In this document: in pieces, positions 7,021 through 8,878 of the stretch
Numbering within the stretch: position 1 is the first letter of the stretch
How the letters are laid out: each line of letters starts with the position of its first letter
Assembly (NCBI GenBank): GCA_028684915.1
Contig: JAQUEZ010000245.1
Location: 1 to 8,878, forward strand
Origin: Desulfobulbus sp.
GTDB taxonomy: Bacteria > Desulfobacterota > Desulfobulbia > Desulfobulbales > Desulfobulbaceae
Direction: 5' to 3'
Length of the DNA: 8,878 bases
The notes under the pieces: model-generated
Database searches by the model: none
Told to the model about the DNA's origin: nothing
Seen by the model: the letters and a program-made list of their open reading frames with translations, nothing else
Made by a program: the position numbers and the translations under genes

Positions 7021-7101
7021 CTGCTACCTTTGAATCAATACGAACTGAAGAAATGTTTCCTTCTAACGACAAGCCTCACCAGTGGCGCCGCAGAACTTGC
7101 C

Positions 7102-7136
7102 GCATCAGCGCCGCCAACGTTCTCACCATCTGATGC
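7102..7136. repeat. Inverted repeat GCATCAG...CTGATGC
   Basis: Perfect 7-bp arms at 7102-7108 and 7130-7136 with a 21-nt spacer, in the divergent intergenic region. Function unknown; it could be a regulator site or chance. Confidence 0.25.
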
Positions 7137-7275
7137 ATGCTTTTGTTGGACGAAGCCGCTGCGCGACAGACAAGCCCCGAGCGACCCTGATTGCTCATAA
7201 TGAACATGTTGTGATTTCAGGTAATAGGTAGAAAGCGGCTGGACCAAGGCAAGGTCGGCCGCATCAACCATGACC

Positions 7276-7282
7276 AAGGAGG
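7276..7282 (+). promoter_or_regulatory. Shine-Dalgarno that sets the recombinase start
   Basis: AAGGAGG lies 5 nt before ATG 7288. An upstream in-frame ATG at 7270 precedes this site and has no comparable site of its own, so 7288 is taken as the start. Confidence 0.75.
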
Positions 7283-7287
7283 TTACA

Positions 7288-8195
7288 ATGAACACCACCC
7301 TGCCACAAGATCCTCATTTCACCAAGCAGTATCAACACCATCTGCAATGCCTGAAGCTGGCCGGCCTGCAACCCAAGACCATCGATGCCTACGCCAGGGC
7401 GATCCGGCGTATCGGCAACTATTTCGACTGCAGGATCGACAATCTCAGCTCCGATCAGCTGCGCGAGTATTTCACGGAACTCCTGGACACGCATTCCTGG
7501 AGCGCGGTCAAGCTCGACCTGTACGGTCTGAAGTTCTTTTCCATCCATGTACTGCACAAGCCCTGGGAGGATATCACCCTGATCAAACCTCCCAAGACAT
7601 CCAGAATCCCAGATATCCTTTCCGCCGAGCAGGTGGGGCAATTGTTTGCCGCGACCAGGATCTTGAGCTACAAAATATTCTTTTTCACCTGCTACAGTAT
7701 GGGTCTGCGCCTTGGCGAAACCATCCGACTTACTGTCGGCGATATTGACGCGGATAACATGCGGGTCCATATTCGGAATGCCAAGGGCAACAAGGACCGG
7801 CTGGTGCCGCTGCCCGACAAGACCCTGCGTGTGCTGCGGGAGTTCTGGGCCGTGCACAAGCACCCCCGCTTTCTTTTCCCCAGCAGGAAACGAGGGCTGG
7901 AAAACGCCCATTTGGTTGAACTGCCCCTGGACAGGGGCGGCATTCAAACCGCTATGCAGTCCGTGGTTCAACAGCTCGGCATAAAAAAAAATCTCATGCC
8001 ACTCCCTGCGCCACAGCTACGCCACCCATTTGCTGGAGGCTGGAGGCTGGAGTCGATCTGCTTGAGCTGCAACAGATCCTTGGCCATGTCAGCATCCTGA
8101 CCACCGCCAGATACACCCACCTGACCACCAACACATCCAACAAACGGTTCAGATTTTGGTTCGCTGCGCTCTCAAAATCTAACCTTATTCGTTAG
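7288..8195 (+). pseudogene. Tyrosine recombinase (XerC/D-like, of the type often paired with IS91-like transposases), two frameshifts
   Basis: The first ~234 codons are intact: a SAM-like N-terminal domain (~12-95), then the catalytic core with Arg141 (SMGLRLGE) and Lys166 (NAKGNKDRLVPLP). The rest of the active site is present but in other frames. HSLRHSYATHLLEAG, with the His (8000-8002) and Arg (8009-8011), is one frame on after an A9 run (7983-7991). LGHVSILTTARYTH, with the His (8085-8087) and nucleophile Tyr (8112-8114), is in the third frame after an extra 7-nt repeat unit (8033-8052). As read in the first frame it stops at 8098-8100 and lacks both. The third frame ends at TAG 8193-8195, inside the attC core box, so its last ~20 codons come from attC DNA and not from the family's usual C-terminus. 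The integrase-specific extra helix of integron integrases is absent, so this is not IntI. The usual partner transposase is missing. Confidence 0.85.
8033..8052 (+). repeat. 7-nt tandem repeat CTGGAGG, one extra copy
   Basis: CTGGAGG at 8033-8039 and 8040-8046, followed by CTGGAG at 8047-8052. Removing one unit restores TTG CTG GAG GCT GGA GTC, i.e. the conserved LLEAGV after ATH in tyrosine recombinases. The family frame thus shows that a two-copy run slipped to nearly three copies and broke the gene. Confidence 0.85.
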
Positions 8196-8197
8196 AC
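8135..8197 (+). repeat. Integron attC recombination site (single, 63 bp)
   Basis: All parts of an attC are visible. R'' is ATCCAAC (8135-8141), fitting RYYYAAC. R' is GTTAGAC (8191-8197), fitting GTTRRRY and complementary to R'' at five of seven positions. L'' is GGTTCAGATTTTG (8146-8158). L' is CAAAATCTAACC (8173-8184) and pairs with L'' fully except for one extrahelical base (C8150, a G on the bottom strand). Unpaired spacers are 4 and 6 nt and the terminal loop is 14 nt (8159-8172). The length lies within the known range of about 57-141 bp. The extra C in the left arm follows the pattern I recall for the aadA7 attC (ATTCAAG against ATT-AAG). This sets the orientation: the cassette gene is to the left and the cleavage point is after G8191. 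No integron integrase and no second attC was seen. Confidence 0.75.
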
Positions 8198-8300
8198 TCT
8201 CTTTTGCTACACCAATTTCCTTACTGACAAAGTTGAGAAAATATTTTGCCTCGTCCGCAGAATTTGTGGGTAGCTCTTTGAAAATAAGCCCCAGAACCTG
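8172..8300 (-). CDS. Reverse-oriented coding remnant right of the attC (unrecognised)
   Basis: On the minus strand a frame reads LIFKELPTNSADEAKYFLNF and VSKEIGVAKESLTNKVRF, with its stop (8174-8172) inside the attC loop. The composition is AT-rich and protein-like, unlike the GC-rich DNA that follows. The frame stays open rightward to about 8486, but beyond ~8287 its sequence is that of the GC-rich hairpin block, so it is probably a truncated gene fused to non-coding DNA. It would lie in the first cassette position after the attC and point against the attC direction. No family recognised; it may be chance. Confidence 0.25.
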   Translation of the reverse strand, partial: QVLGLIFKELPTNSADEAKYFLNFVSKEIGVAKESLTNKVRF

Positions 8301-8480
8301 AGCCCCGCCGGAGGTGAGGGGGTGGGCACCTGCCGCCCCGTCACCCTTGCCACTTTTAGGATGAGCGTGGAGGCTCGGCTCTGTCAAGGCTGGGCGCGCA
8401 GCGCACACCCGCAGGGCTTGGCCTTGATAGAGTCGGGGCTCCATGCTATTGCCAATGTCCTGTTGTGGGGTTTGCAGAAA
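8287..8480. other. GC-rich non-coding block, probably mobile-element DNA
   Basis: From about 8287 the sequence turns sharply GC-rich (GCCCCGCCGGAGGTGAGGGG and on) and holds the long hairpin at 8364-8447. Both strands have open frames, but their residues follow the inverted-repeat structure and look non-coding. It may be the leader region of the ISL3-type element at its right or a separate small element. Its exact borders are not visible. Confidence 0.4.
8364..8447 (+). other. Long hairpin: 27-position stem, 30-nt loop
   Basis: Positions 8364-8390 pair with 8421-8447 as RNA of the plus strand: 22 Watson-Crick pairs, 4 G-U pairs and one G-G mismatch (8373/8438). On the minus strand the four G-U pairs become A-C mismatches, so the plus-strand RNA is much the better folder. 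The loop (8391-8420) is GC-rich. No T-run follows, so it is not a standard intrinsic terminator. It could be a structured RNA, a hairpin element, or an element end. Confidence 0.5.
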
Positions 8481-8482
8481 AA

Positions 8483-8550
8483 GCATCCTGTCTTACCTTG
8501 CCGGGGAAAGTTTCTTCCAAAAACTCCTCAGCTTATCTCAGACAGGATGC
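8483..8550 (+). promoter_or_regulatory. Inverted repeat masking the transposase start codon
   Basis: GCATCCTGTCT (8483-8493) is the exact complement of AGACAGGATGC (8540-8550), with 46 nt between. The right arm contains the bases just upstream of, and including, ATG 8547. RNA read in from the left would fold and hide the start, while RNA starting inside the loop would lack the left arm. IS10 and IS50 protect themselves from outside transcription in this way. Whether it works here is inference. Confidence 0.45.
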
Positions 8551-8800
8551 ATATCAAAACTATCTTGAATCGTATCGAAAAACAACTGGGTTTTATCTAT
8601 GACACCTGCAGATGGCGCGACTCCGGGCCACCGGCATTGGTGATAACGTTGCGGCCCCAAGCCGGGAGCAAGCCCATCTGCTCCAAGTGCGGCGAAAGGC
8701 GACCAGGGTACGACACCCTACGTGCCAGGACTTTTGCTTTTGTCCCCTTATGGGCATAGCCGTCAGGCTAAGCCGTAGCGGCAGAGATTATGTCGCATGA
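8547..8800 (+). pseudogene. ISL3-family transposase, N-terminal remnant, frameshifted and truncated
   Basis: The frame from ATG 8547 gives MHIKTILNRIEKQLGFIYD, then LRPQAGSKPICSKCGERRPGYD and RTFAFVPLW, which is the usual N-terminus of ISL3 transposases. It includes the first Cys pair (CSKC) of the zinc-binding domain. At 8750-8755 TTATGGGCATAG closes the frame; the family continues PLWGI, so one G has been lost from TGGGGC. The other frame does continue GIAVRLS to about 8775, then loses similarity and ends at TGA 8798-8800. The second Cys pair, the helix-turn-helix and the DDE catalytic domain are missing. No good ribosome site precedes the ATG, whose upstream bases lie in an inverted repeat. 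Confidence 0.8.
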
Positions 8801-8842
8801 TGGCATTAATTCTCCACCAAATCTCAGAGTAAAAATGTCTTG

Positions 8843-8863
8843 AACTATCTCCGGAGAATAGTT
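8843..8863. terminator. Hairpin followed by a T-run (possible terminator)
   Basis: AACTATCT (8843-8850) and AGAATAGTT (8855-8863) pair with one bulged A around a CCGG tetraloop. A T6 run (8868-8873) follows about 4 nt later. The gap to the T-run and the A-T-rich stem make it a weak plus-strand terminator; it could equally be a regulator dyad for a gene off the right edge. Confidence 0.3.
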
Positions 8864-8878
8864 TCCATTTTTTCTCTT

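What the first reader, a model, noticed from the sequence alone, without database searches (positions are those of the whole stretch)
8135..8197. Solitary integron attC site with no integron integrase in view
The 63-bp site has both core boxes, paired inner arms, one extrahelical base on the recombined strand and a short loop: the parts integron integrases recognise by structure rather than sequence. It suggests the window touches a sedentary cassette array or a cluster of attC sites lacking an integrase.
Basis: partly seen in the sequence, partly recalled or inferred. Interest (0 to 1): 0.75.

Follow-up and report, generated by a model that had tools for sequence, protein, structure and literature searches.

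The report
Transposon end mimicking integron attC
The integron-like hairpin is the end of a jumping element whose full copies carry two different DNA-moving enzymes, whose tip looks like an integron cassette site, and which often inserts itself into real cassette sites.

Summary
The 63-bp attC-like hairpin is real and not chance, but it is not a lone cassette attC. It is the right end of a mobile element, present here as a 1,046-bp internally deleted copy (7146-8191). Full relatives (about 2.3-2.45 kb) read: G|TTGGACGAAGCCGC left end, tyrosine recombinase (Int), IS91-family HUH transposase, attC-like right end. Its R'' box (GTCCAAC) complements the element's own left end (GTTGGAC), as in an integron cassette. 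Covariation supports the stem with its bulged base. Copies insert at G^TT with a bipartite target, T(-12) A(-9) TTG^TTA, often next to attC-like hairpins: on the attC bottom strand, R'' side, against cassette orientation. The window copy sits in such a site: its joined flanks give a 91-bp attC on the minus strand. A relative on an E. coli plasmid has the same geometry in a class 1 integron. Int lacks the extra stretch of IntI, so it is not IntI. I read this as an IS91-type element that integrates by an integron-like G^TT exchange through its own Int; HUH-driven transposition is the main rival. Two papers note isolated aspects; nine searches found no account of the whole.

The parts
7146..8191 (+). 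Element, internally deleted copy (1,046 bp), bounded by G^TT on both sides
   Evidence: Homology to relatives begins near 7145 and ends near 8197; length
7145..7173 (+). Left end GTTGGACGAAGCCGCTGCGCGACAGACAA; its GTTGGAC complements the R'' box of full copies' right ends
   Evidence: Aligned left ends of 14 copies; pattern in 29 of 257 genomes of the class
7270..7991 (+). Tyrosine recombinase Int, N-terminal part in the start frame
   Evidence: PF00589 and PF13495; NCBIfam
7983..7991 (+). A9 run where Int changes frame
   Evidence: 49 of 56 readable copies are out of frame at this run
7992..8195 (+). Int C-terminal part in another frame (HSLRH motif), running past the deletion junction into the right end; end of frame read by eye
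   Evidence: Frame offset; sequence
8136..8143 (+). TCCAACAA: deletion junction; int homology and right-end homology overlap here, about 1.4 kb with the IS91 transposase gene is missing
   Evidence: spacing in L001, L003-L009; transposase domains in relatives
8135..8197 (+). attC-like right end (the finding): R'' 8135-8141, arms 8146-8158 and 8173-8184, R' 8191-8197
7061..7145 (-). Larger part of the cassette attC invaded by the element (R' GTTAGAA = 7067-7061 on the minus strand)
   Evidence: 13.1 bits, E 0.049
8191..8197 (-). R'' box GTCTAAC of the invaded attC; joined to the larger part it gives a 91-bp site
8198..8290 (-). End of an open frame (...KEIGVAKES) that runs into the invaded attC; possible remnant of a cassette gene
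   Evidence: Frame; no Pfam or NCBIfam match; extent judged by eye

Best explanation
The 63 bp is the right terminus of an IS91-family element that also carries a tyrosine recombinase (Int). Shown: the architecture, the exact G^TT ends, a conserved bulged hairpin, the complement between the right-end R'' box and the element's left end, dispersed multicopy insertions, a bipartite target, and entry on the attC bottom strand at its R'' side. Inferred: the HUH transposase supplies single-stranded or circular element DNA; the right end folds as an attC-like hairpin; Int exchanges strands at G^TT with TTG^TTA targets, much as IntI joins a cassette to attI, but without IntI. The window copy lost its transposase gene by a short-repeat deletion and would need help in trans. 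Identity as such an element: about 0.93. Int as the integrating enzyme: about 0.5.
For: Hairpin at the element end in 11 of 16 homologous loci; transposase PF04986/PF14319 in 3 of 3 tested. Flanks: G 79 of 79 left, TT in 45 of 46 right; T(-12) 60 of 79, A(-9) 62 of 79, kept where no hairpin adjoins (30 and 33 of 41). Such distal bases fit a recombinase site better than a tetranucleotide HUH target. Covariation: 5 pairs changed on both sides, score 0.116 against 0.047 shuffled, 0 of 500. Relatives with GTTGAAC left ends have R'' GTTCAAC in L116-L118. attC-type targets: 20 of 79 left flanks are strong hairpins against 2 of 46 right flanks; bulge on the 3' arm in 17, 5' arm in 2, neither in 11 of 30. 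Same geometry on RCS41_p. One insertion is exact (DUF1499 contiguous).
Against: A bulged hairpin beside GTT is also what an IS91 oriIS could be. T(-12) is not significant in G092 (6 of 15, p 0.14). L119-L121 pair left GTTGAAC with R'' GTCCAAC, one mismatch (a G.T on the bottom strand). Int lacks the IntI stretch that holds extrahelical bases, so how it would read the bulge is unclear. In most copies Int is out of frame. A model of other attC sites does not score this end.
Confidence: 0.68

Rival explanations
1. Pure IS91-type rolling-circle transposition: the hairpin is the oriIS, cut next to GTT by the HUH enzyme; the attC likeness is convergence and Int has another task, such as resolving products.
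For: IS91-family transposase in full copies; right flanks share TT in 45 of 46 and A in 37 of 46; IS91 targets next to oriIS are GTTC/CTTG (recalled). Transposase intact in 11 of 12 G070 copies while Int is split in all 12.
Against: Left-flank bases at -12, -9, -3, -2 are constrained, which a 4-nt target beside one end does not need. R'' complements the element's left end.
Confidence: 0.27
2. An ordinary integron cassette (or a cassette that caught an IS91 pair), moved by IntI into attC sites and scattered genomic G^TT sites (attG-like).
For: Cassette-like ends and R''-left-end complement; IntI in 19 of 29 genomes with the element (hand count).
Against: 120 of 228 genomes without the element also have IntI, so no clear link. 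Entry is at the R'' side against cassette orientation in the window, L116, L117 and by bulge side in 17 of 19 decided cases, not at R' as IntI does. G235 has 11 copies and only broken IntI pieces, though copies could predate the break.
Confidence: 0.08
3. One reading: a free cassette attC of a sedentary array or CALIN.
For: Structure at 8135-8197; a true split attC beside it.
Against: The hairpin is an element end in relatives.
Confidence: 0.04

Closest known systems
IS91 family (ISfinder), members preceded by a tyrosine recombinase, e.g. ISAzo26 (L122)
   Same: Int then IS91 transposase in one direction; left TTGGAC and a right-side GTCCAAC plus hairpin in L122. That ISfinder groups such members is recalled.
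   Different: L122's right boundary is not clear to me; I found no report that the group's end is attC-like or that it targets attC at R''.
Integron gene cassette / attC (IntI system)
   Same: RYYYAAC and GTTRRRY boxes, one bulged arm, bottom strand folds better, G^TT ends, R'' complements the unit's own start.
   Different: Own Int without the IntI stretch; an HUH transposase; opposite orientation in arrays; dispersed copies.
ISShvi3 next to an attC (PMC9229058) and ISCR28 with attC at or after it (PMC12772301)
   Same: IS91-like elements beside an attC; both seen as passages.
   Different: One case and 'data not shown'; neither links the attC to the element's own terminus, Int or target rule in what I saw.
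Group IIC-attC introns and IS1111-attC elements
   Same: Both invade attC; the introns use TTGT/T on the bottom strand against cassette orientation (PMC7923331, passages).
   Different: Unrelated enzymes (ribozyme/reverse transcriptase; DEDD transposase); no attC-like end of their own (recalled).
SE elements (strand-biased circularizing integrative elements, PMC9345347)
   Same: Tyrosine recombinases with strand-biased circles (passages).
   Different: The paper found no attC-type inverted repeats at their sites; no IS91 transposase seen in the passages.

Membership tests
Integron attC site | R'' RYYYAAC and R' GTTRRRY with paired inner arms and extrahelical base | tested here: met
   covariation on 22 ends
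Integron attC site | Score with an attC covariance model | tested here: inconclusive
   Home-made model of 8 sites: 6.6 bits, E 2.6; IntegronFinder's model not available
Integron attC site | Recombined by IntI | not testable with these tools
   Needs an assay
Integron gene cassette | Same orientation as the array, inserted at R' of the preceding attC | tested here: not met
   Opposite orientation and R'' side in the window, L116, L117; bulge side 17 to 2, 11 undecided
Integron integrase IntI | Over the TIGR02249 cut-off and extra domain between KDR and HxLRH | tested here: not met
   84.1 of 265 bits; 64-72 residues in 6 of 6 Int against 105 in 5 of 5 readable IntI
IS91 family | Y2 HUH transposase with zinc-binding domain | tested here: met
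   3 of 3 full relatives; gene deleted in the window copy
IS91 family | No conserved sequence on the left flank; 4-nt target beside oriIS (recalled) | tested here: not met
   Left-flank rule T(-12), A(-9), TTG
CALIN | Two or more attC sites without intI nearby | tested here: inconclusive
   One split attC plus the element's own end in the window; no genome held

The most novel reading that the evidence does not exclude
These elements are autonomous cassettes: an HUH enzyme makes single-stranded DNA, the tip folds as an attC, and a tyrosine recombinase without the IntI extra domain performs integron-type exchange at G^TT. That would be a second enzyme family working on attC-like hairpins and a possible link between IS91 transposons and the origin of cassettes.
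Probability: 0.3. Interest if true: 0.87.

Novelty: new variant of a known kind. Interest (0 to 1): 0.62.

Why it matters
Where attC sites came from and how cassettes arise are open questions. A widespread element with an attC-like end, its own recombinase and a single-strand-making transposase makes one answer testable, and a relative already sits in a class 1 integron. Programs that call attC sites may also count its ends as lone attC sites.

Tried and rejected
No whole genome is held for the window, so its own IntI and array could not be checked. No plasmid DNA match for 7200-8878 and no viral relative of the recombinase. My box-and-fold attC finders were too strict or too noisy to map arrays, and the home-made attC model is weak. 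IntI-driven movement was weighed by co-occurrence and orientation and found unlikely. The thought that the Int frameshift is decay was dropped, since the split recurs in divergent copies. G092 looks like a noisy assembly (element lengths 2435-2441 with one 2560, many broken frames), so I give the frame count without it too. The Int gene of the E. coli relative has no near match in the 5,426 E. coli genomes. A model of the window-clade end found the ends in L116 (E 0.00044) and weakly L118 and L119 (E 0.12, 0.44) but not those in L117, L120, L121, L122 at E up to 1. Of four frames read across joined flanks only one was informative. The attG paper is not held. Papers seen as passages: PMC9345347, PMC12772301, PMC9229058, PMC12901181, PMC7923331, PMC8876359, PMC4792948; others as search listings only.

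Full report
What is there. The 63 bp fold as described: two core boxes, 12 paired arm positions, one extra base, a 14-nt loop. The bottom strand folds better than the top, as in attC. A strict version of the architecture occurs once in the window and never in 1,000 dinucleotide shuffles.

It is an element's end. One scan of genome contigs with the recombinase gave 16 loci, most of them bins named after sulfate-reducing groups. Aligned to the window, homology begins at 7134-7144 in 13 of 16 loci; in L006, L007 and L013 it begins at 7263-7277, though L006 and L007 have the left end by pattern. It stops at 8129-8143 in L001-L009. The 63 bp then reappear about 1.4 kb further along in 8 loci (L001, L003-L009; twice in L006), and closer in L010 and L011, which are themselves shortened: 10 of 16 by alignment. 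A later pattern search found the end in L002 too. L012-L016 show none; several are cut off by contig ends. The missing 1.4 kb carries an IS91-family transposase: PF04986 and PF14319 in 3 of 3 tested. The window copy is therefore an internal deletion through the 8-bp repeat TCCAACAA.

Ends and targets. The left-end pattern occurs in 29 of 257 genomes of the class of G004, with 14, 17 and 11 copies in G070, G092 and G235. A looser pattern hit 17 of 395 genomes of the phylum, with one hit of the reversed control, in another genome (G626). I collected 82 distinct left ends, 47 with a right end by a strict expression. Among 79 left flanks G(-1) is 79, T(-3) 72, T(-2) 63, A(-9) 62, T(-12) 60; among 46 right flanks TT is 45 and A(+3) 37. 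The two distal positions hold where no hairpin adjoins the junction (30 and 33 of 41), but T(-12) is not significant within G092 (6 of 15). Twenty of 79 left flanks are strong hairpins (z below -2.5, 40 mononucleotide shuffles) against 2 of 46 right flanks. Of 30 left flanks with a stem of 10 or more pairs near the junction, the bulge lies on the 3' arm in 17, the 5' arm in 2, neither in 11: the element reads the attC bottom strand and enters at R''. One insertion into a DUF1499 gene leaves the domain contiguous when the flanks are joined, so nothing beyond GTT is duplicated there.

The window's own target. Joining 7145 to 8192 gives, on the minus strand, a 91-bp site with R'' GTCTAAC and R' GTTAGAA, entered by an open frame that has no family match. 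An attC model from eight other sites picks its larger part, 7061-7152, at 13.1 bits, E 0.049, the best of six hits in the window; the 63 bp come second at 6.6 bits, E 2.6. So the window does carry a cassette attC, but not the one reported, and it is broken by the element.

The class 1 integron case. On E. coli plasmid RCS41_p (NZ_LT985243.1) a relative (Int 51% identical) lies between aadA1 and qacEdelta1, opposite to the cassettes. Its left flank is a hairpin ending GAATTG and its right flank begins TTAGACATT, so it entered the R'' side of the aadA1 attC (that attC is recognised from memory). Its left end is GTTGAAC and its R'' GTTCAAC: both differ from the window clade and still complement each other, as in L117 and L118. 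L119-L121 have left GTTGAAC but R'' GTCCAAC, one mismatch. A model of the window-clade end finds the L116 end at E 0.00044 although it was not in the training set; it misses L117 and L120-L122. Salinivibrio L117 shows the same attC geometry.

Structure under selection. On 22 distinct window-clade ends, 99.5% of cells pair (shuffled 96.0), 5 pairs change on both sides (1.1), the covariation score is 0.116 (0.047), 0 of 500 shuffles reaching each; pair types 9 against 6.9 (22 of 500); sliding the partner destroys it. The bulge stays while its base and the neighbouring pairs change (GGTT-C to GGAT-A on the top strand). The outer box pairs in that set use the element's left end joined as in a circle, and barely vary.

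The enzyme. Int is a XerA/XerD-like tyrosine recombinase. Between the KDR and HxLRH motifs it has 64-72 residues (6 of 6) where IntI of the same bacteria have 105 (5 of 5 readable; a sixth gave no frame). IntI's extra domain accommodates extrahelical bases and these stop the second exchange (PMC4792948, passages). Int relatives are common: 4,465 proteins at E<=1e-40 among 8,000 scored candidates. The gene is out of frame at an A-run in 49 of 56 readable copies, 37 of 42 without the noisy G092; the four G143 copies are in frame and lack the long run. Two clades need opposite shifts. This suggests slippage or programmed frameshifting rather than decay.

How it works. Shown: ends, target rule, strand preference on attC, selection on the fold. 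Inferred: Int makes the G^TT exchange, with single strands from the HUH enzyme. Donor and target share little beyond G^TT, which suits one exchange resolved by replication, as in integrons, better than two exchanges with matching spacers. That the hairpin is simply an oriIS is not excluded; the distal target bases and the co-varying left end argue against it.

IntI's part. IntI is abundant here: 139 of 257 genomes at E<=1e-60, 136 over the cut-off. By my hand count it is in 19 of 29 genomes with the element and 120 of 228 without. G235 has 11 copies and only broken IntI pieces, but the copies could predate the break.

What is known. [quoted passage not shown] PMC12772301 reports attC sites at the end of or right after each ISCR28, data not shown, and in its discussion speaks of most ISCR28, read as passive shuffling. 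Group IIC-attC introns use TTGT/T on the same strand. Nine searches of the paper library showed no account of an IS91/recombinase element whose own end is attC-like; most subscription papers are not in it.

Noticed in passing
7983-7991: A-run inside int: 49 of 56 readable copies are out of frame there, in two clades needing opposite shifts; looks like conserved slippage.
   Followed up: partly
L010, L030, L156: Other short copies with both ends and little between (822, 693 and about 550 bp), like the window copy: possible helper-dependent derivatives.
   Followed up: no
L081: A 173-nt repeat, six copies, beginning GTTCTTGGCGAC, sits directly beside attC-like hairpins in G070: perhaps a small element that also uses G^TT.
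   Followed up: no
L092 and L095 (G235): Two element copies have the same right flank but different left flanks, as one-ended transposition or recombination could give.
   Followed up: no
2-199: End of a transposase-like frame (PF21804, E 3.6e-10) at the window's left edge.
   Followed up: no
8322-8759: Open frame with a short cysteine pair that reminds me of an ISL3-type transposase start (recalled); no Pfam match and no NCBIfam match over its cut-off.
   Followed up: no
class of G004: Integron integrase at E<=1e-60 in 139 of 257 genomes of this class: integrons are very common here.
   Followed up: no
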